Position numbers and translations under genes: made by a program
In this document: positions 14,911-24,789 of the stretch, one piece after another
Layout of the letters: each line of letters starts with the position of its first letter
Position numbering within the stretch: position 1 is the stretch's first letter
DNA from: Lentzea kentuckyensis
GTDB lineage: Bacteria; Actinomycetota; Actinomycetes; Mycobacteriales; Pseudonocardiaceae
Direction of reading: 5' to 3'
Length of the DNA stretch: 64,000 nt
Assembly: GCF_002150765.1 (NCBI RefSeq)
Contig: NZ_MUYM01000128.1
Coordinates: 1 to 64,000, forward strand
Notes under the pieces: model-generated
The model's input: only the letters and a program-made list of their open reading frames with translations
The model's database searches: none
What the model was told of the DNA's origin: nothing

Positions 14911-14992
14911 AGGGCCTGTGTCGAAGTCTGGGTTCGATGAGAGTCGCGCCTCAGGCTCGGCTATCGCGGATCCAGACTTCGACACAGGTCCT
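14911..14992. repeat. 82-bp element bounded by long inverted repeats (MITE-like)
   Basis: Perfect 17-bp arms (14915-14931 and 14972-14988), extending to about 20 of 22 bases at 14911-14932 and 14971-14992, enclose 40 unrelated bases. The ends resemble the terminal inverted repeats of small insertion sequences, and there is no coding capacity. It lies between the starts of DUF4262 and the CHAT-TIR gene. It may be a miniature transposable element or a large operator. Confidence 0.55.
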
Positions 14993-15142
14993 AGTGTGCC
15001 GAGGAGCACCGACAAGATCGTTTGGGCAGTTCGTGGACAGAAAGTTGACAAACGATCTGTGCGCCGTCTGGATCGTTAACCTGCGACGCACGGAGGATCG
15101 TCGATGCGCCCACGAACACCCCAGCGGGGCTGCGGGGACTGA

Positions 15143-18100
15143 ATGGAAATCGAACCCGGCACACCGCTGGCGAACGCGATCAAAGCCGCGCATGCCGCTG
15201 CCCGACGCGGCGACGTGCACGGGATCGACCACTACTACCGGGAGGCCGCGAAGGTCACCTGGATCATGGCCCACGACCACTGCGCCGCCCTGCTCGCCCA
15301 CGGCGCGATCGCGAAGGCCGCGCGGCGTTGCGACGAGTACCTGGCCATGAGCAACGACATCGAGCTGAGAGTCCTCCGGGCCCAGATCCGCAGTGCCGCA
15401 ACAGATCACGCGAGTGCCGCCCGCGATGTCCGGGCATTGCGCAAGCTGAAGCTCACCGAACTGCAGCAGGCGGTGCTCGCTCGGGTGGCCGCGCTGGCCG
15501 CCGCCGACCGCTTCGACTTCCCCACCGCGGAAAGCGAGCTGGACGCCGCCGAACGGCACTACCGCCGCGCCGGACGCACCGAGTACCTGGAGCACGTCGG
15601 CGACGACCGGGTGCTGCTCGACGTGCGCCGCGGCTCCCACGTGCCGAAGATCAACGGCCCGGCCCCGCGCACCCCGGCCGAGTACCTGCGACGGGCCGCG
15701 GCACTGCGCAGGGAAGTCCGCTACGAGGAAGCGCTGGCGCTGATGACCAGGTGCGCCACCAGCTTCGAGATCGAGCCCGCCCTGCGGGTCGCCGTCGTCC
15801 ACGAACTGACCGTCCTGCTGGTGCTGACCCGGCAGGCCGGCGCTGCCCGCAGACTGTTCCCGCTGCTCGTCGCCGCGGCCGGGCCGGAGGCGTTGTCGAG
15901 GCTCCCGGACGCCACCGGGACGCTCACCCCCGAACGCTGTCTCGACCGAGTCCGCCGGCTGATCGCGGACGGCCGGGTGAGCACCGCGGAAGGCCTGCTG
16001 GGCCAGGGAAACTCCGCCCTCTGGCACCTCACCAAGGGCGAACTCGCCTATGCCGGCGAACAATTCGGCCAGGCCGCGCTCCACTTTCGTGAAGCCGCCC
16101 GTTCGAACCACGCCGAGCTGAAAGCGTTGGCACTGCGCAAACTCGGCGACACCTGCGCCGACGCCGGCGACGAGGACCAGGCCTCCCAGCTCTGGACGGC
16201 GTCCCACCAGGTCGAAGAAGCCATCACCGGCTACCAGGACGCCAGGCTCCGGCTGCTGCGCGCGACCGGGGACGAGTACCACGACCGGGTGCTCGCCGCG
16301 GTCCGCCGCGTCCGGCGCGAAGGCAGGAAAGCGTTGGCAGGACTGGTGGTCGCGATGAAGACCGCCATGCACGACATCCCCGGCCGCACCGATCCGCCTG
16401 CCGCCAGACGCTGGCTCCGCCGCACGACCAGGCTCCTGCCGCGTGACCAGGTCGTGTGGATGATGCACCCCACCACGGACCAGATCCACCACGTGATCAT
16501 CGGTCGCCGCACCACCCACCTGACGACCGACGTCCACATCAGCGAGCTCACCGACACGATCCGCAGGCTGACGGAGTGGAATCCCCGGCACAACCCGGCG
16601 ATCTTCGGCACCCTGCTCGTCGAGCTGACCGCGCTGATCGGCCTGGAAAGCGTGCTCGACGCCCTGCCGCCGAGGACCACGAGGATCGCCGTCGTGGCGG
16701 GCGGCATCCTCGCGGACGTCCCGTTCGCCGGTCTGCCCGTCCCCGGCACCCACCACTTCCTCGGACTCACGCACGCGCTGTCCAGCCTGCCGAGCCTGTC
16801 CGCGCTTCCCGTGCTGCGACGCCGCGCCCGCAAGCAGAGAAGCGACGAGACCGTCACGTTCCGGGAAGCCGCCGAACTCGAACGAGCCCTGAAAGAGCAA
16901 CGCTGCCAACGCATCCGCATCGACGCCCAGAGCACTTACGACCGGCTGAACCCGGACCGGTCCTGGCTGAAGTTCAGCGACGAACGGATGTCCGCGGAGA
17001 CGTGGCAACGTCTGGACTTCAGCAGCTGCGGCACGGTCGTGCTCGGCCGCGACGACCAGTCCGGCTTCGTCCACGCGGCCATCACCGCGGGTGCGGGAGC
17101 GGTCGTGGCGGCGCGGTGGAAGGCCGAGGACGAGACCGCGCGCAAGGTGCTCGACGCGTTCGACCGCAACCTGGCCGAACTCCCCCGCGACCGCGCGTTG
17201 CAACACGCGCTGAACGAGGTCGCGGACCGGCACCCGGCTGACTGGGCGTGCTGGTCCCTGCACGGCGACGCGGGAATCCAGACCACAGCGGGCCCGCTGC
17301 GCAGACGATTCAGGAAGAACGGAGAACCCGTGCCGCTCGAAACCCGTCCCAAGGTGTTCCTGTCGTTCGCCGACAAGGACCGCCCGCACGCCGAGCAACT
17401 CCGTGCCGAACTGGAGTCGCGTGGCATCAACGCCTACCTGGACGAGACCGAGATCGAGGCCGGCACCGTCAACGAGGCGCTGGCGACCTCCGACTACTAC
17501 GTCGTGCTGTGGTCCGGGAACGTCCCGCAACGCACCGGGGACTGGGTCGCGGCGTTCAACCTGGAGCTGACACGCCGCCGTGCCTTCCTGTTCATCGTGC
17601 GGCTGGACGAGGAACCGCTACCGCCGCTGCTCGCACCGCGCAAGCACGTCGACCTGGTGAACACCGCCGACAGCCTGGTCGCGATCTGGCGCGCCGACCG
17701 CAAGTCGGAGCTCCCGGTCTTCCCGCAGCCGATGCCGCCCACACCGGACGGCCCGACCACCGCGATCTCCGTGCGCAGCCACGACCTCGGCGTCACGCAC
17801 ATCGTCATGGCCCCGCTGCACCTGACCGGTGCCGACCTGTACCGGGCGGTGTTCGCCGCACTGCGACTGCCGACCGAACAGCCCACCTTCGACGGCACGA
17901 TCGGCATGCGCTTCTCCTACGAGCTTCTCCAGCAGGACAAAAAGATCCCGGACGATCAGTCCACTGTGGACCTCAAGTCCGGGATCGTCGACATCGCGGT
18001 CCGCGTCGAGTCGTTCGAGCCGAAGAGCGCGGACGATGGCCTCGATGTCGATCGGCAACGCATGCTGCTCGTCGCCGCCTTCCGCCATCTCCTTCCCTAG
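15143..18100 (+). CDS. TPR-CHAT-TIR-ubiquitin-like multidomain protein
   Basis: 985 residues, no signal peptide. Domains by eye: helical TPR-like repeats (about 1-430); a CHAT caspase-like domain (about 440-725: IAVVAGGILADVPFAGLPV, LSSLPSLSALPVL, AAITAGAGAVVAARW, HPADWACWSLHG); a TIR domain (737-850: KVFLSFADKDRPHAEQLRAE, then YYVVLWSGNV and AFLFIVRL); and a C-terminal ubiquitin-like segment (about 887-960, ending LLQQDKKIPDDQST then SGIVDIAVRV). The catalytic positions look lost: CHAT His aligns with Gln-596 (DAQST), CHAT Cys with Arg/Asp-636/637 (VVLGRDDQSG), and the TIR glutamate four residues after Trp-801 aligns with Phe-805, although Glu-808 is near. CHAT and TIR domains are common in defence and cell-death proteins; here a sensor or scaffold role seems likely. 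It ends at a strong terminator. Confidence 0.82.
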   Translation: MEIEPGTPLANAIKAAHAAARRGDVHGIDHYYREAAKVTWIMAHDHCAALLAHGAIAKAARRCDEYLAMSNDIELRVLRAQIRSAATDHASAARDVRALRKLKLTELQQAVLARVAALAAADRFDFPTAESELDAAERHYRRAGRTEYLEHVGDDRVLLDVRRGSHVPKINGPAPRTPAEYLRRAAALRREVRYEEALALMTRCATSFEIEPALRVAVVHELTVLLVLTRQAGAARRLFPLLVAAAGPEALSRLPDATGTLTPERCLDRVRRLIADGRVSTAEGLLGQGNSALWHLTKGELAYAGEQFGQAALHFREAARSNHAELKALALRKLGDTCADAGDEDQASQLWTASHQVEEAITGYQDARLRLLRATGDEYHDRVLAAVRRVRREGRKALAGLVVAMKTAMHDIPGRTDPPAARRWLRRTTRLLPRDQVVWMMHPTTDQIHHVIIGRRTTHLTTDVHISELTDTIRRLTEWNPRHNPAIFGTLLVELTALIGLESVLDALPPRTTRIAVVAGGILADVPFAGLPVPGTHHFLGLTHALSSLPSLSALPVLRRRARKQRSDETVTFREAAELERALKEQRCQRIRIDAQSTYDRLNPDRSWLKFSDERMSAETWQRLDFSSCGTVVLGRDDQSGFVHAAITAGAGAVVAARWKAEDETARKVLDAFDRNLAELPRDRALQHALNEVADRHPADWACWSLHGDAGIQTTAGPLRRRFRKNGEPVPLETRPKVFLSFADKDRPHAEQLRAELESRGINAYLDETEIEAGTVNEALATSDYYVVLWSGNVPQRTGDWVAAFNLELTRRRAFLFIVRLDEEPLPPLLAPRKHVDLVNTADSLVAIWRADRKSELPVFPQPMPPTPDGPTTAISVRSHDLGVTHIVMAPLHLTGADLYRAVFAALRLPTEQPTFDGTIGMRFSYELLQQDKKIPDDQSTVDLKSGIVDIAVRVESFEPKSADDGLDVDRQRMLLVAAFRHLLP

Positions 18101-18156: not shown

Positions 18157-21100
18157 TCACGACTCGCGCCGGCGCCTGCCCTTCAGCAGCAGGTACGCAC
18201 CACCGGCGAGCATCGTCAGCGCCGCGAGGAGCAGGCTCCACACGGTCACACCGGTGCTGGCCAGCGGCGGTGCCGGCGGCTTGGGCAGCAGACCCGCGTC
18301 GAGGGTCAGGTCGACGCGCTTGTCCTTGCCCAGCTTGACGACGTGGGTGCATCCGGACGCCGGGTCGGCGTCGGAGTCCTTGCCGTCGTCACCGACGTGC
18401 GGCGTGGTCAGCTTGCGGCCGGCCACCAGACCGGTCTGCGGATCGGCGTTGAAGCAGACCTTGTACTCACCGTCGGGAAGATCGGTGAACAGGTACTTGC
18501 CGTCCTTGTCGGTCTTGCCCTGCGCCACCGGCTTGCCGGCGCCGTCCTGCAGGAACACCGGCAGGTCCGGCACACCGGGCTCACCGGCGTCCTGCACGCC
18601 GTTGGAGTTGTTGTCGTACCAGACGAAGTCACCGACGCGGTTGGCCGGCGAGACGAGGCCGAGGTCGAGGGTCAGGTTCTCCCTCTTGCCCACACCGACG
18701 GTCACCGGCGGCGTGCAACCACTGGCCGGATCCACATCGGAGTCCTTTGCGTCGTCACCGATGTTCGGCTTCGTCGCCTGGTATCCGGCGTAGTCACCCG
18801 GCAGAGCGCCCATCTCGAAGCACACCTTGTAGGTGCCGTCCGGGATGTTCGGGAACTCGTACCTGCCGTCCTTGTCGGTCTTCACCGGCTCGCCGACGGG
18901 CTTGCCGCCGGCGTCCAGCAGCTTGACCGGCACACCGGGAACGCCCGGCTCGCCCGGATCCTGCACGCCGTTGCGGTTCTTGTCGGACCACACGAGGTCG
19001 CCGAGCTTGTTCGGCGGTGCGATCAGACCCGCGTCGAGCGTGTAGTCCCGGCGCTTGCCGATGCCCACGGTCGTGGTCAGCGTGCAGCCGGTCGCCGGAT
19101 CGGCGTCGGAGTCCTTCGTGTCGTCACCGGCGTTCGGCTTGGTGAGCGTGTAGTCCGCCACCGCCGCAGGCAGGTTCTTGATGTCGAAGCACACCTGGTA
19201 CGTGCCGTCCGGCAGGTTGTCGGTGAAGTAGTACTTGCCGGTGGAACTGGTCTTCTGCGTGCCCAGCTCCTTGCCCTGAGCGTCCTTCAGGACGGCGGTG
19301 ACGCCCTCGACGGGCTTCTCGCCCTCGTCCTGCAGGCCGTTCTTGTTGGCGTCGATCCACACGTAGTCACCGACACCGTTGGCCGGCGGGTGGATGCCGG
19401 CGTCGACGGTCAGGTTCTCGCGCTTGCCGAGACCCAGCTCCACCTCAGGGGTGCAGCCGGTCGCCGGGTCGGCGTCCGAGTCCTTCGCGTCGTCCGAGCC
19501 GACGTTCGGCGTGGTGAGGACGAAGTCCTTCACCGCGTCCGGCATCGGGCCGAAGCACACGGTGTACTTGCCGTCGGGCAGGTTGTCGAAGACGTACTTG
19601 CCGTTCGGGTCGGTCACCGTGGTCTTGCCGTCCGACAGCTTGACCGGAACGTTCGGGACACCGGGTTCGCCGTCGTCCTGCACGCCGTTCTTGTTGTCGT
19701 CACGCCACACCGTGTCGCCGAGCTTGTTCGGCGGGGACACCAGGCCCATGTCCAGCGTGAGGTCCTCACGCTTTCCGGTACCCAGCGTGGTTTCCGCCGT
19801 GCAGCCGTCAGCACCCGCGTCCGAGTCGGCCGCGTCGTCGCCACCCGCGTTCTGCGTCGTGACCTTGTAGTCCTTCACGTTCGCAGGCAGGTTGGCGAGG
19901 TCGAAGCAGACCTTGTAAGTCCCGTCCGGCAGGTCGGTGAACAGATACTTGCCGTCCGCACCGGTCTTCGTGGTCGCGCCGGTGCTCAACTTGACCGTCA
20001 CACCCTCGACCGGGATGTCGGAGGCGTCCTGCAAGCCGTCCTTGTTGACGTCGATCCACACGTAGTCGCCCAGCCGGTTCACCGGCGAGATCAGACCCAT
20101 GTCGATGGTCGGGTCTTCCGGCTTGTCGACGTTCAGCTCGACCTCGGGCGCACAACCCGTTGCCACGTCGGCATCCGAGTCCTTCGCATCGTCACCGGCG
20201 TTCGGCTTGGTGACCTGGTAGTCCGCGACCGGCCCCGGCAGGTTCTTGATGTCGAAGCACACCTGGTACTTGCCATCGGGCAGGTTCGGGAACTCGTACT
20301 TGCCCTGCTCGTTGGTGGTCGTGGTCTTGTCGCCCACCTTGACCGTCACGCCGGGCACACCGGGCTCGTTCGGGTCCTGGAGGCCGTTCTTGTTGTCGTC
20401 ACGCCAGACCGTGTCGCCCAGCTTGTTCGGCGGCCTGATGCCGAGGTCCAGCGTGAGGTCCTCGCGCTTGGCACTGCCCAGCGACGTTTCCGGCGTGCAA
20501 CCGTCGGCGCCCGCGTCGGAGTCCTTCACGTCATCGCCGCCCGCGTTCGGCCTCGTCACCAGGTAGGCCTGGTACGGCGCCGGCATGTTGGCGATGTCGA
20601 AGCACACCTTGTACGTGCCGTCGGACAGGTCGTCGAAGACGTACTTGCCCTGGTCGTTGGTGGTCGTGGTCTTGTCGCCCACCTTGACGGTCACGCCAGG
20701 AACGCCCGGCTCGCCGCCGTCCTGGACACCGTTGCGGTTGGTGTCGACCCAGACGTAGTCACCCAGCCGGTTCGGCGGGGAGACCAGGCCCATGTCCAGC
20801 GTGAGGTCCTCACGCTTTCCGGTACCCAGCGTGGTTTCCGCCGTGCAACCGTCAGCACCCGCGTCGGAGTCCTTCGCGTCGTCCCCACCGGCGTTCTGCG
20901 TGGTGACCTTGTAGTCCTTCACCGCGGCAGGCAGGTTGGCGAGGTCGAAGCACACCTTGTAGGTGCCGTCCGGCAGATCGGTGAACAGGTACTTGCCGTC
21001 CGCACCGGTCTTCGTGGTCGCGCCGGTGCTCAGCTTCACCGTCACACCCTCGACCGGAACGTCGGACGCGTCCTGCAGACCGTCCTTGTTGACGTCGATC

Positions 21101-24100
21101 CACACGTAGTCACCGAGTCGGTTCACCGGCGAGATCAGACCCATGTCGATGGTCAGGTCTTCCGGCTTGTCGATGCTCAGCTCGACCTCGGGCGCACAAC
21201 CCGTTGCCACGTCGGCATCCGAGTCCTTCGCATCATCGCCCGCGTTCGGCTTGGTGACCTGGTAGTCCGCGACCGGCCCCGGCAGGTTCTTGATGTCGAA
21301 GCAGACCGTGTACTTGCCGTCCGGCAGCTTGTCGAAGACGTACTTGCCGTCCGGCCCCGTCTTCGTGGTGGCACCGTTCGACAACTTCACCGGCACGTCA
21401 GGGACACCGGGTTCGCCGTCGTCCTGCAGGCCGTTCTTGTTGTTGTCGATCCAGACGTAGTCGCCGAGCTTGTTCGGCGGCCGGATGCCCGCGTCGAGCG
21501 TGAGGTCCTCGCGCTTGTTCGGGCCGACGGTGGTCGTCTGCGTGCACTTCGACGTCGGATCGGCGTCGGAGTCCTTGAGATCGTCACCGGCGTTCGGCTT
21601 GGTCAGCAGGTAGCCCGCGTACTCGGCCGGAGCGGTCGAGATGTCGAAGCACACCTGGTAGGTGCCGTCCGGCAGGTTGTCGAACAGGTACTTGCCGTCG
21701 GCACCGGTCTGCTTCGGCTGGCCGACGGGCTCTCCGGCGCCGTTCTTCAACGTGACGGTCACACCAGGAACGCCCGGCTCGTCGCCGTCCTGGACGCCGT
21801 TGCGGTTGGTGTCCTTCCAGACGAAGTCACCGACCTTGTTGCTGGGCGGCGAGATGCCGGCGTCGAGGGTCAGGTCCTCCCGCTTGGCCGCGCCCAACGT
21901 CGTCGTCGCGGTGCAGCCGTCAGCCGGATCCGCGTCCGAGTCCTTTGCGTCGTCACCGGCGTCCTTGCCGGTGAAGGTGAACCCGGCGTACAGCGAAGGC
22001 AACGTCGACAGGTCGAAGCACACCTTGTAGACGCCGTCGTCGAGCTGGTCGAACAGGTACTTGCCCTGCGCGTCCGTCTTCGTCGGCTGGCCGACCTGCG
22101 TGCCGTCGCCATTCTTCAGCACGACCGTCACGCCCGGCACACCCGGCTCGTCGGCGTCCTGCAGGCCGTTGCGGTTCGCGTCGACCCACACGAGGTCACC
22201 GAGCTTGTTGGTGACCTTCGCGACGATGCCGGCGTCGACGGTGTGATCCGCGGTGCCCGCCTTGCCCGTGGTCACCTGGGTCTTGCCGTCGGCGTCCACG
22301 TTGGAGTCGATGACGCGGTCCGGCCCGGCCTCCTTGACCGTCCACTTGAGATTCGCGGGGTCCGGGGCGTTCGGCAGTCCGCCCGCGTTCACCGCGCTGC
22401 GGTCGAACGTCAGGTTGTAGCAGGTCTCCGGCTTCAGACCGTCCGCGACGCCGAAGTAGTACTCGCCCTTGGCGTTCGTGACCTTGGTACCGAGCGCCGC
22501 GCCACCGGCACACGGCGTCGCGGTGACCTTCACGCCGGCGATCGCGGGCTCGTCACCGTCCTGCGTGCCGTCGGCGTCGGTGTCGAACCACACGCGGTTG
22601 CCGAGCTGCACAGGTGCGAGATCGCACAGCGCCTCGAGGTCGGCGAGGCCGTTCGCCTTGCCCCAGCCCTCGGTGTTCACGTCGCTGATCAGGTAGGCGT
22701 TCGGGTAGCCGTCGGCCATCATGCCGCCGGTGGCCCGGTCGAACCAGCCGGTGCCGCCGGTGTTGATCGCCGTGGGGTCCATCACCATCGCGGGCATCCG
22801 GCTCTCGCCGTACACGACCGCGAGCGCACCCTGCGCGGTCTCGTTGTGCGGAGCGCCGTTGGCGTCCTTGTAGTACTCACCGGGGTAGTACTCGACAACA
22901 TCAGCGGTGCCGTTGTTGGGACAGGTCGAGGTCCCTTCCCAGGCGTAGCTGCCGTTCGCCTGACGACAGGCCCGGTTGAGGTCACCACCGCTGACGGTGT
23001 CCCACTGTCCCGCCGACCCGTCGGCAGGAGACAGGCTCTTGCCGCCCTGGTCACCGAAACGGTCGCGGAACGCCAGGACGAGGTCGCCGTTCGCCTCGAC
23101 ACCGAGGTCGGTCAGCAGCGGCTCGGGGTGCTCCACGAGCCCGCCGGTCGGGGTCGGCTGCTTGAAGGTGGTCTGCCAGGGCAGCCAGTGGTCGGTGTTG
23201 GTGCCCTGCCACAGAACGGTGCCCCGCCTGAAGGTCAACGGCTGGTTGATCACCGGCGCACTGAACGCGCCAGCGGTGAACGTCCGCACGACGACCCGCA
23301 TGTCGGCGGCGTTCTGGGTCGTCTCACCGGAACAGACACCACCCACGTAGAGCACGCCGTCGCGGACGCCGAGGGCGCCCGGCCGCCAGTCGTTCGCGTT
23401 GGGGCAGGATGACGGGATCGCGTAGGAGGCCTTGGCAGCCGCCGCGGTCGCCGCCGTGGCGTCGTAGACGTAGAGCTTCCGGTCGCCGAGGTTGACGACG
23501 TAGAGCTCGCTGCCGTCCTCGGAGATGTCGATGTCGCCCAGCGCCTCCTTGCCGACCACGTTGGCGAAACCACCGTCGAAGTTGTTCTGGTGGTTGTGCT
23601 TGGTGATGCCCGCACTGGGCACGGTGGCGAACAGCGTCGTCGCGCCACCCGCGGCGGGCGTGACGTAGATGCCACCGGCGCTACCGGGGCCGTAGTCGGT
23701 GAGCCGCTTCGCGAACGCGCCGGAGAAGATCCGCTTGTCCTGCTTGCGGTACGCGATGCCGTACACCGAGCCCGTGGCACCCTGGTTCGCGATCTGCGCC
23801 GGCGCGGGGGCCGTGCCGCGGTTGGTGAACGGGAAGGTGATCAGCGATCGCGCGGCGTCGTTGACGTTGCTGCTGCCGTCCGACTTGCGCGTCGCCCGCT
23901 GACAGCCGGTGACCAGCGTCGGGTTGGCCTGGCAGTAGTCGGCCGGGTTCCACAGCGCGGTCGTGACGGTCTTGTTCTGCCCGCCGGAGACGTCGACGAA
24001 CATCGTGTTGCTCTCGAGCCCGGCGCCCGCGGGGGCGGGCACCAGTGGGCTGCCGGCCGGCGGGTTGACCTGCACGCGGTACTTGCCGCCGCTCACCGAG

Positions 24101-24354
24101 CCGAGACCCACGGTGACGTTGCCGTCCGCGGCTGTCGTGCCGGTCGCGGTCTTGCCGGCGGGATCGGTCACGAGGACGGAGGCACCGGCCACGCCGACTT
24201 CGAGGGCGGCCTCGTACGTGCCGTTCGCGTTGACGTCACGAATGACCTTCACGGTCAGTGTGCCGTCGCCGGGACCGGCGTGCGCGGTCGGTATCACCAC
24301 GGCGAACGAGGCGGCCATCAGCGCACTGAGCGCGACAGCGAGCGGACGTTTCAC
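18157..24354 (-). CDS. LAXTG-anchored surface protein with 12 SdrD B-like repeats
   Basis: 2,065 residues. GTG-24354 is chosen: AGGAG lies just upstream and the protein then starts with a classical signal peptide (VKRPLAVALSALMAASFAVV, ending THA). Next come a Cna-B-like module (about 27-110) and a roughly 450-residue region resembling a beta-propeller. Twelve SdrD B-like repeats of about 116 residues follow, each opening like LGDYVWIDxNxxGxQDxxE, a calcium-binding pattern. The C-terminus is a sortase signal: LASTG, hydrophobic segment, RRRRES. LAXTG is the class E sortase motif of high-GC Gram-positives. Likely a long wall-anchored stalk or adhesin. Repeats 4-5 and 7-8 are nearly identical in DNA. 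Confidence 0.92.
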   Translation of the reverse strand: MKRPLAVALSALMAASFAVVIPTAHAGPGDGTLTVKVIRDVNANGTYEAALEVGVAGASVLVTDPAGKTATGTTAADGNVTVGLGSVSGGKYRVQVNPPAGSPLVPAPAGAGLESNTMFVDVSGGQNKTVTTALWNPADYCQANPTLVTGCQRATRKSDGSSNVNDAARSLITFPFTNRGTAPAPAQIANQGATGSVYGIAYRKQDKRIFSGAFAKRLTDYGPGSAGGIYVTPAAGGATTLFATVPSAGITKHNHQNNFDGGFANVVGKEALGDIDISEDGSELYVVNLGDRKLYVYDATAATAAAAKASYAIPSSCPNANDWRPGALGVRDGVLYVGGVCSGETTQNAADMRVVVRTFTAGAFSAPVINQPLTFRRGTVLWQGTNTDHWLPWQTTFKQPTPTGGLVEHPEPLLTDLGVEANGDLVLAFRDRFGDQGGKSLSPADGSAGQWDTVSGGDLNRACRQANGSYAWEGTSTCPNNGTADVVEYYPGEYYKDANGAPHNETAQGALAVVYGESRMPAMVMDPTAINTGGTGWFDRATGGMMADGYPNAYLISDVNTEGWGKANGLADLEALCDLAPVQLGNRVWFDTDADGTQDGDEPAIAGVKVTATPCAGGAALGTKVTNAKGEYYFGVADGLKPETCYNLTFDRSAVNAGGLPNAPDPANLKWTVKEAGPDRVIDSNVDADGKTQVTTGKAGTADHTVDAGIVAKVTNKLGDLVWVDANRNGLQDADEPGVPGVTVVLKNGDGTQVGQPTKTDAQGKYLFDQLDDGVYKVCFDLSTLPSLYAGFTFTGKDAGDDAKDSDADPADGCTATTTLGAAKREDLTLDAGISPPSNKVGDFVWKDTNRNGVQDGDEPGVPGVTVTLKNGAGEPVGQPKQTGADGKYLFDNLPDGTYQVCFDISTAPAEYAGYLLTKPNAGDDLKDSDADPTSKCTQTTTVGPNKREDLTLDAGIRPPNKLGDYVWIDNNKNGLQDDGEPGVPDVPVKLSNGATTKTGPDGKYVFDKLPDGKYTVCFDIKNLPGPVADYQVTKPNAGDDAKDSDADVATGCAPEVELSIDKPEDLTIDMGLISPVNRLGDYVWIDVNKDGLQDASDVPVEGVTVKLSTGATTKTGADGKYLFTDLPDGTYKVCFDLANLPAAVKDYKVTTQNAGGDDAKDSDAGADGCTAETTLGTGKREDLTLDMGLVSPPNRLGDYVWVDTNRNGVQDGGEPGVPGVTVKVGDKTTTTNDQGKYVFDDLSDGTYKVCFDIANMPAPYQAYLVTRPNAGGDDVKDSDAGADGCTPETSLGSAKREDLTLDLGIRPPNKLGDTVWRDDNKNGLQDPNEPGVPGVTVKVGDKTTTTNEQGKYEFPNLPDGKYQVCFDIKNLPGPVADYQVTKPNAGDDAKDSDADVATGCAPEVELNVDKPEDPTIDMGLISPVNRLGDYVWIDVNKDGLQDASDIPVEGVTVKLSTGATTKTGADGKYLFTDLPDGTYKVCFDLANLPANVKDYKVTTQNAGGDDAADSDAGADGCTAETTLGTGKREDLTLDMGLVSPPNKLGDTVWRDDNKNGVQDDGEPGVPNVPVKLSDGKTTVTDPNGKYVFDNLPDGKYTVCFGPMPDAVKDFVLTTPNVGSDDAKDSDADPATGCTPEVELGLGKRENLTVDAGIHPPANGVGDYVWIDANKNGLQDEGEKPVEGVTAVLKDAQGKELGTQKTSSTGKYYFTDNLPDGTYQVCFDIKNLPAAVADYTLTKPNAGDDTKDSDADPATGCTLTTTVGIGKRRDYTLDAGLIAPPNKLGDLVWSDKNRNGVQDPGEPGVPGVPVKLLDAGGKPVGEPVKTDKDGRYEFPNIPDGTYKVCFEMGALPGDYAGYQATKPNIGDDAKDSDVDPASGCTPPVTVGVGKRENLTLDLGLVSPANRVGDFVWYDNNSNGVQDAGEPGVPDLPVFLQDGAGKPVAQGKTDKDGKYLFTDLPDGEYKVCFNADPQTGLVAGRKLTTPHVGDDGKDSDADPASGCTHVVKLGKDKRVDLTLDAGLLPKPPAPPLASTGVTVWSLLLAALTMLAGGAYLLLKGRRRRES
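18290..22610 (-). repeat. Array of 12 in-frame SdrD B-like coding repeats
   Basis: Units of about 340-350 nt. The stretch around 19730-20270 recurs at about 20775-21315 with a spacing of exactly 1,044 nt (three units), with very few differences over several hundred bases. This indicates recent unequal exchange or gene conversion. Confidence 0.85.
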
Positions 24355-24789
24355 GAAATCGCTCCTAGACAGCAGGGTCGGGGGCACACACTGCGGGAGC
24401 TTGGAAAATGCCACCGTTTCCGCAGGTCCGCCCGGTTACCCAGAGCCGCTTGTCACACTTCCTGGTGAACTTGTGCCGCCGGGACGGCCGCTTGATCGCC
24501 GATTCGCGTCGCGTTCCGTGTAGCACTCTTCCCTCGTCGAATGAACTGCGATCCACGATCGGGGGATACAGGTTTAGAACGGATTCGTGGCGAGTGACCG
24601 TCCACAGAGGAGGGTTCGCTCTTCTGGGTCGTTCGTGTGCGTGGAGTTCTCAACTTGACCACACGGCCTATGGGTCTGAACGGGTGAATACGCGTGTTGG
24701 ACTCAGCCTTTGCTGGCTTCAGCGCCTGTAACCGGTGAAGGTCGCTCTCGGGCGGTGAAGGGCACGAGCGAACGCTGAAGGGAAGGCCG
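24355..24789. other. 435-bp intergenic region between divergent genes
   Basis: Separates the surface-protein gene from the ECF sigma operon. No convincing coding frame. The only structure seen is a set of three 20-bp-spaced direct repeats next to the sigma gene. Confidence 0.6.
24733..24781 (+). promoter_or_regulatory. Three direct repeats at 20-bp period before ECF sigma gene
   Basis: CGGTGAAGG at 24733-24741 and 24753-24761, and CGCTGAAGG at 24773-24781, are exactly 20 bp apart, so they lie on one DNA face. The last one borders the start codon (24790) and may double as the ribosome site. Confidence 0.4.

What the first reader, a model, noticed from the sequence alone, without database searches (positions are those of the whole stretch)
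15143..18100. TPR-CHAT-TIR-ubiquitin-like fusion with both enzymatic sites apparently dead
One 985-residue protein joins helical repeats, a caspase-like CHAT domain, a TIR domain and a C-terminal ubiquitin-like segment. CHAT and TIR are usually effectors of immunity or cell death. Here the CHAT His/Cys pair aligns with Gln-596 and Arg/Asp-636/637, and the TIR glutamate position with Phe-805. This suggests a scaffold or receptor that recruits other effectors, or a new catalytic arrangement using Glu-808. The gene stands alone between an inverted-repeat element and a strong terminator. Domain calls are by eye.
Basis: partly seen in the sequence, partly recalled or inferred. Interest (0 to 1): 0.85.

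Follow-up and report, generated by a model that had tools for sequence, protein, structure and literature searches.

The report
Disarmed relic of a protease-TIR system
This Lentzea protein is a fused, burnt-out descendant of a three-gene surface-protein, protease and TIR set found in related soil bacteria: it has lost its membrane partner and both active sites, while sister species still carry working-looking versions.

Summary
The 985-aa ORF is real. Its CHAT and TIR domains are confirmed by profile, the N-terminal part models as helical repeats, and an orthologue's tail models as a ubiquitin fold. Both active sites are lost here, but one residue call is wrong. The CHAT His is Gln-596 and the Cys lies in an 11-residue deletion, as reported. 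The TIR glutamate position is Asp-800, not Phe-805. Relatives change the reading. Outside Lentzea, 15 of 273 family genomes carry a strong TPR-CHAT match with an intact His/Cys pair, each directly behind a gene for an undescribed ~1,000-residue lipoprotein or membrane-anchored protein; in 8 of the 15 a separate TIR-Ubl gene follows. In Lentzea the two are fused at one syntenic site. Only 4 of 24 Lentzea genomes keep the partner; all 4 keep His, Cys, Trp and Glu, against 5 of 16 fused copies without it. The dyad was lost about five times on the best tree, with frames kept. So this copy is a decaying, catalytically dead pseudo-enzyme of an otherwise catalytic-looking system. A scaffold role is possible but unshown; the Glu-808 idea is not supported. 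The intact three-gene set, not found in PADLOC or in my paper searches, is the better target.

The parts
15143..18100 (+). Fused TPR-CHAT-TIR-Ubl gene, 985 aa, CHAT and TIR active sites lost
   Evidence: fused orthologues in 19 of 23 other genus genomes, one of them lacking the C-terminal part of CHAT
15143..16432 (+). TPR-like helical repeats, aa 1-430 (approximate border)
   Evidence: helical model, best confidence over aa 1-340; TPR Pfam matches below cut-off in orthologue L037
16433..17302 (+). CHAT caspase-like domain, aa 431-720 (approximate borders), dead
   Evidence: Pfam CHAT 50.4 bits; two matching stretches in the frame
16928..16930 (+). CHAT His position, Gln-596
   Evidence: His in 11 of 20 Lentzea proteins and in 17 of 17 outgroup proteins
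17045..17050 (+). Junction G635/R636 where the 11 residues with the CHAT Cys are missing (same break in L. alba)
   Evidence: alignments
17345..17737 (+). TIR domain, aa 735-865 (approximate borders)
   Evidence: Pfam TIR_2 738-840
17462..17467 (+). Junction G774/T775: 5-aa deletion in the TIR domain
   Evidence: not in L. alba; L048 and L053 have gaps near the same place
17531..17536 (+). Junction R797/T798: 3-aa deletion that takes the W of WxxxE
17540..17542 (+). TIR catalytic Glu position, Asp-800
   Evidence: profile against solved TIR domains; E in 17 of 20 Lentzea proteins
17756..18097 (+). Ubiquitin-fold domain and C-terminal helix, aa 872-985
   Evidence: strand-strand-helix-strand-strand-strand order; Z 8.3-9.0 to ubiquitin-fold chains for orthologue L039's domain
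14912..15142 (.). Slot where partner-bearing Lentzea hold the ~3-kb membrane partner gene; here only 231 bp
   Evidence: gap 3.16-3.20 kb in the 4 partner loci, 153-369 bp in the 15 other named loci

Best explanation
The gene descends from a TPR-CHAT protease gene and a TIR-Ubl gene that are separate, and lie behind a gene for a lipoprotein or membrane-anchored partner, in other Pseudonocardiaceae; the two were fused in a Lentzea ancestor. In the intact set I infer that the surface-anchored partner (sensor or substrate) governs the TPR-CHAT protease and that the TIR-Ubl protein is an NAD-cleaving effector or an adaptor, as in other CHAT/TIR immune modules. In the line to this strain the partner gene was lost; the CHAT His/Cys pair was lost before the split from L. 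alba; the TIR site was lost after that split. What remains is an in-frame, weakly constrained pseudo-enzyme. If it still acts, it does so by binding (TPR, TIR-TIR contacts, Ubl), not by cutting protein or NAD. Shown: fusion, synteny, partner absence, residue losses, their order relative to L. alba, in-frame state, dN/dS. Inferred: functions of the partner and of each domain, and any residual role.
For: Split TPR-CHAT and TIR-Ubl genes with an upstream partner in 8 family genomes, partner plus TPR-CHAT alone in 7, the three-gene set in 2 genomes of another family. The partner profile hits exactly the 15 of 273 non-Lentzea family genomes that have the strong TPR-CHAT match. Same locus in 19 of 19 named Lentzea loci. 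Partner found in 4 of 24 Lentzea genomes, filling a ~3.2-kb slot that is 153-369 bp in the other 15 loci. With partner, 4 of 4 keep His, Cys, TIR Trp and Glu; without, 5 of 16 keep all four (Fisher p = 0.026) and 6 of 16 keep His and Cys (p = 0.087; p = 0.026 if L048, which lacks 12 residues right behind its Cys, is called broken); none of these is corrected for kinship. Five dyad losses without regain on the best tree of flanking genes, under either coding, with window and L. alba sisters. L. alba keeps REWITDEW where the window has R---TGDW. Craspase C627A and C627S abolish protease activity (PMC9729208, passages); TIR NADases need the Glu (PMC7282519 and PMC10022894, passages).
Against: Partner loss and active-site loss are not proven linked: the tree offers 3 independent pairs (1 on well-supported branches), too few for the test, and 5 or 6 partner-less genomes keep the dyad. 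dN/dS below 1 and three of three in-frame gaps against L. alba mean that selection still acts, so 'relic' may undersell it. No activity is known to me for any member. The partner is predicted outside the membrane (by eye) while TPR-CHAT and TIR-Ubl show no obvious export signal, so how they meet is unexplained. One of ten outgroup TIR domains (L090) also lacks the Glu, and two Lentzea relatives (L043, L054) lost it independently.
Confidence: 0.8

Rival explanations
1. Selected non-catalytic scaffold, receptor or decoy: the dead protein is kept on purpose and works by recruiting or blocking other effectors through TPR, TIR and Ubl contacts, like the sensor-type plant TIR proteins without the glutamate.
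For: Frames are open in 20 of 20 aligned proteins; dN/dS is 0.41 in the window/L. alba pair and 0.21-0.30 in five other pairs; two Lentzea (G011, G016) keep only TIR-Ubl at the same locus, with H or S at the Glu position; plant sensor-type TNLs lacking the Glu pair with active partners (PMC7282519, passages).
Against: N/S in the TPR region is 80/61 in the window pair against 200/324 pooled over three intact-dyad pairs (Fisher p = 1e-4), so the binding platform is loosening here; one Lentzea (G014) lacks the gene at that locus altogether. No recruited effector stood out among the neighbours, which were not all profiled.
Confidence: 0.35
2. Pure relic: the protein has no function and has simply not yet been lost.
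For: Serial loss across the genus: partner, CHAT dyad, TIR motif, CHAT C-part (L053), TPR-CHAT (G011, G016), whole gene at its locus (G014); raised dN/dS in this pair (0.41 against 0.08-0.12 for four flanking genes).
Against: The three gaps against L. alba are in frame and no stop is seen in 20 proteins; dN/dS is below 1 in every domain.
Confidence: 0.35
3. New catalytic arrangement using Glu-808.
For: Glu-808 is E in 19 of 20 Lentzea proteins.
Against: It is just as conserved where the normal Glu is present; the 8 split relatives have D or E there besides the normal Glu, and a second Lentzea copy (L076) has T there besides the normal Glu. It lies about two helix turns beyond the motif glutamate.
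Confidence: 0.03
4. Artefact: the deletions are assembly or sequencing errors.
For: The genome is a 261-contig draft, and the 3-aa TIR deletion is not seen in the other 19 proteins.
Against: The CHAT deletion and Gln are shared with L. alba, another genome; the gaps are in frame.
Confidence: 0.04

Closest known systems
TPR-CHAT protease of Craspase (Csx29, type III-E CRISPR)
   Same: TPR repeats followed by a CHAT domain; the outgroup members keep the His/Cys pair that Craspase uses (H585, C627; PMC9729208, passages)
   Different: The regular neighbour is a lipoprotein or membrane-anchored protein; fused to TIR-Ubl in Lentzea; dyad absent in the window copy. A Cas7-11 gene was not searched for
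BovA (Borvo, PADLOC model)
   Same: Weak profile similarity of orthologue L039's CHAT (best E 5e-5)
   Different: No BovA match for the window protein or for two split TPR-CHAT proteins, L066 and L077; that Borvo is a single-gene system is recalled
Bacterial TIR NADases (AbTIR, PdTIR, ThsB)
   Same: Same fold and profile; WxxxE with both Trp and Glu in 7 of 8 split relatives and 10 of 20 fused Lentzea proteins
   Different: The window copy lost the Trp and has Asp for Glu; no ThsA-like partner was searched for
CHAT+TIR proteins of ternary conflict systems (a Thiohalocapsa DGR target; PMC10907252, passages)
   Same: CHAT and TIR in one protein of a multicellular bacterium
   Different: Not shown to share TPR, Ubl, the partner or the gene order; no direct comparison was made

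Membership tests
CHAT protease | CHAT profile match | tested here: met
   Pfam 50.4 bits, cut-off 24
CHAT protease | His/Cys catalytic dyad | tested here: not met
   Gln-596; Cys deleted. File as CHAT-derived pseudo-protease
TIR NADase | TIR profile match | tested here: met
   TIR_2 51.9 bits, cut-off 28
TIR NADase | Catalytic Glu in WxxxE | tested here: not met
   Asp-800 with the Trp deleted; NADase activity itself not testable here
Ubiquitin-like domain | Beta-grasp ubiquitin fold | tested here: met
   orthologue L039 model, Z 8.3-9.0, rmsd 2.0-3.2, 69-77 residues; the 50 rows listed are ubiquitin-fold proteins or complexes by their titles, one a talin FERM head. Caveats: modest pLDDT, Z not far above the tool's stated background of 7 to 8, and the window's own tail was not modelled alone
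Conjugated ubiquitin-like protein | C-terminal Gly-Gly | tested here: not met
   none of 16 aligned members ends in Gly-Gly; all have HLxP near the end
Craspase (type III-E CRISPR) | Cas7-11 gene beside TPR-CHAT | not tested
   no dedicated search was made
Known anti-phage system (PADLOC) | Models for partner and TPR-CHAT | tested here: inconclusive
   no match for 2 partners or 2 split TPR-CHAT proteins; generic TIR-type models for TIR-Ubl, and weak BovA matches for fused L039

The most novel reading that the evidence does not exclude
An undescribed conflict system of Pseudonocardiaceae and a few relatives: a ~1,000-residue surface-anchored partner plus a TPR-CHAT protease, in its longer form joined by a TIR-Ubl protein, whose presence matches a longer partner C-terminus (8 of 8 long, 7 of 7 short). 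In Lentzea the two inner proteins fused, and after partner loss the fusion turned stepwise into a pseudo-enzyme that is kept as a non-catalytic regulator or decoy.
Probability: 0.35. Interest if true: 0.7.

Novelty: new variant of a known kind. Interest (0 to 1): 0.5.

Why it matters
It turns an apparent oddity (a protein with two dead active sites) into a natural series of decay, with intact, half-dead, dead, truncated and empty sites at one locus in one genus, so the order in which a CHAT/TIR module is disarmed can be read directly. It also points to a large lipoprotein or membrane-anchored protein of unknown fold that co-occurs with a CHAT protease in every one of the 15 family genomes (outside Lentzea, of 273 sampled) that have either, which makes 'what does a surface-coupled bacterial caspase-like protease sense or cut?' testable.

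Tried and rejected
Phe-805 as the TIR Glu position: rejected. Glu-808 as a substitute: rejected. Ubl by sequence: no useful hit; EAD2 at E 0.044 in 1 of 16 members and PDB matches at E 0.09 or worse were treated as chance. AF2 model of the whole window protein: only the N-terminal part is confident (mean pLDDT 56.5), so no pocket superposition was made; the orthologue TIR-Ubl model is modest too (57.8). Partner fold: no Pfam match over cut-off, no PDB match better than E 0.43, no PADLOC match; its structure was not predicted. Partner relic in the window: low-stringency tblastn gave scattered weak matches (best E 0.004), read as chance. Dropped from the counts: 12 non-Lentzea family genomes with weak matches (E 1e-16 to 3e-4) to TIR, CHAT or TPR pieces, and the second TIR-Ubl copy L076 of one Lentzea genome. 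In one search the WYL row is out of frame and is not used; the printed 'N,S' arrays are in the order S,N, and the ratios are right. One search lists no TIR rows because the Ubl fills the list; Foldseek lists TIR chains along with unrelated ones. Earlier I counted L048 as dyad-broken; by residues it keeps His and Cys, and both codings are now given. Nothing in print on this gene set was seen in the listings (PMC open-licence papers only).

Full report
What is there. The ORF at 15143-18100 (+) codes for 985 residues. Pfam finds TIR_2 (738-840) and CHAT (50.4 bits), both above cut-off, and nothing in the last 110 residues. The whole-protein model is confident only in the helical N-terminal part. 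A model of the TIR-Ubl part of orthologue L039 (modest confidence) gives the strand order of ubiquitin, and a second-look alignment places residues 147-236 on ubiquitin, ISG15, NEDD8 and Hub1 chains at Z 8.3-9.0 (the tool's own background is a best Z of 7 to 8). So the Ubl call stands as a fold, with that caution; none of 16 members ends in Gly-Gly, so it is not a conjugation tag of the usual kind.

The active sites. A profile of 16 TIR-Ubl proteins aligns the E of 'rewveaEW' with the Glu of 'DWTNYE' in the AbTIR entries and with chain residue 86 (Glu) of ROQ1. By that register the position is Asp-800, and the Trp four residues before it is deleted. By recall, AbTIR numbering makes the aligned residues W204 and E208, and ROQ1 E86 is its catalytic residue; E208 as the AbTIR catalytic residue is in PMC10022894 (passages). 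Position 805 is L or F in the 8 split relatives, which all have the Glu, and F, L or V in Lentzea.

Relatives in the genus. Of 24 genus genomes (the window's included), 19 have the full-length fused protein, one (G006/L053) has it without the C-terminal part of CHAT, two (G011, G016) have only TIR-Ubl, and two (G014, G019) show no orthologue. At the G014 locus the flanking genes are there and the gene is not; the G019 locus was not examined. Nineteen named Lentzea loci share upstream neighbours. In the 20 aligned proteins the CHAT His is H in 11, Q in 7, R in 1 and missing in 1; the TIR Glu is E in 17, D in 2 and G in 1. Both His and Cys are kept in 10 of 20, one of which (L048) lacks 12 residues right behind the Cys; His, Cys, Trp and Glu are all kept in 9 of 20. 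The window and L. alba share the CHAT losses; L. alba keeps the TIR motif. On a tree of seven flanking genes window and L. alba are sisters; the dyad was lost five times without regain on the best tree, but the deep forks of that tree are poorly supported.

Relatives outside the genus. In 273 other family genomes, 15 carry a strong TPR-CHAT match (12 more have weak matches to single domains); 8 of the 15 have a separate TIR-Ubl gene directly behind it and 7 have no TIR-Ubl match. A further large gene, with a lipobox-like signal or an N-terminal anchor by eye, lies directly upstream in 15 of 15, and its profile is found in exactly these 15 of 273. In a sample of 296 genomes of the class it occurs in 2, both with all three genes. 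The partner's long form goes with TIR-Ubl (8 of 8) and its short form without (7 of 7). His and Cys are kept in 17 of 17 TPR-CHAT proteins; the TIR Glu in 9 of 10. A helix-turn-helix NB-ARC-TPR gene follows the set in 4 of the 8 three-gene family loci and in neither of the two from the other family.

Loss of the partner. Only 4 of 24 Lentzea genomes have it, directly before the fused gene, where the gap to the next gene is 3.16-3.20 kb; in the other 15 named loci that gap is 153-369 bp. All 4 keep His, Cys, TIR Trp and Glu. Of the 16 fused copies without partner, 6 keep His and Cys (L038, L040, L047, L048, L051, L054) and 5 keep all four (not L054). Fisher p is 0.026 for all four residues and 0.087 for the dyad (0.026 with L048 called broken), uncorrected for kinship; the tree offers too few independent pairs for a test. 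The link is therefore suggestive only.

Selection. Window against L. alba, dN/dS is 0.41 (TPR 0.43, CHAT 0.50 and 0.33, TIR 0.34, Ubl 0.39); five other pairs give 0.21-0.30; four flanking genes give 0.08-0.12. Pooled over three pairs each, CHAT has N/S 1.20 in dead pairs and 0.81 in intact pairs (p = 0.039, one of five regions, uncorrected; p = 0.16 without the window pair). TPR is raised in the window pair alone (p = 1e-4). All 20 frames are open, and the three gaps of the window against L. alba are in frame. This is weak purifying selection: neither a free pseudogene nor a well-kept scaffold.

Mechanism. Shown: the fusion, the gene order in relatives, the residue losses and their order relative to L. 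alba, the present lack of both catalytic sites. Inferred from known families: intact members are proteolytic (a Cys mutant of Craspase TPR-CHAT is inactive, PMC9729208, passages) and NAD-cleaving. Inferred without direct test: the partner as sensor or substrate, and an immune role. Unexplained: the partner is predicted outside the membrane, the other two proteins inside.

Novelty. CHAT, TIR and Ubl are known effectors and adaptors, and CHAT with TIR in one protein is known (PMC10907252, passages). I found no record of this gene set in PADLOC or in the paper searches (listings, with passages of PMC7159879 and PMC8195603). The window protein itself is a decayed member; the intact set is the stronger lead.

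Noticed in passing
window 14911-14992: 82-bp inverted-repeat element (26-nt arms, 88% complementary) not seen at the L. alba locus; related pieces at three other places in the genome (contigs C259, C218, C204), so probably a small dispersed element.
   Followed up: partly
L066:4888-8106, L073:267-3623, L042:4957-8001 and relatives: Undescribed ~930-1,130-residue lipoprotein or N-anchored protein upstream of TPR-CHAT; no Pfam, PDB or PADLOC match; conserved Cys pair near the C-terminus.
   Followed up: partly
L066:12771-15008, L068:12847-15075, L069:4453-6687, L072:4621-6822: Helix-turn-helix NB-ARC-TPR gene just downstream of the three-gene set in 4 of 8 family loci; only the L066 copy was profiled.
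   Followed up: partly
L074:8308-9126 and L075:8354-9118: Two Lentzea (G016, G011) keep only TIR-Ubl at the same locus, with S or H instead of the TIR Glu.
   Followed up: partly
L076:8146-9132: Lentzea genome G020 has a second, diverged TIR-Ubl gene (about 40% identical) elsewhere, with the TIR Glu kept and no TPR-CHAT beside it seen.
   Followed up: no
L104:5125-6409: In genome G014 the fused gene is missing from the syntenic site; only about 0.3 kb lies between the neighbours.
   Followed up: yes
window 18157-24414 (-): 2,085-residue surface protein with many repeats and a C-terminal sorting-signal-like end (by eye), convergent with the finding; matched beside the fused gene in 6 of 19 named Lentzea loci (L053 ends at a contig end).
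   Followed up: no
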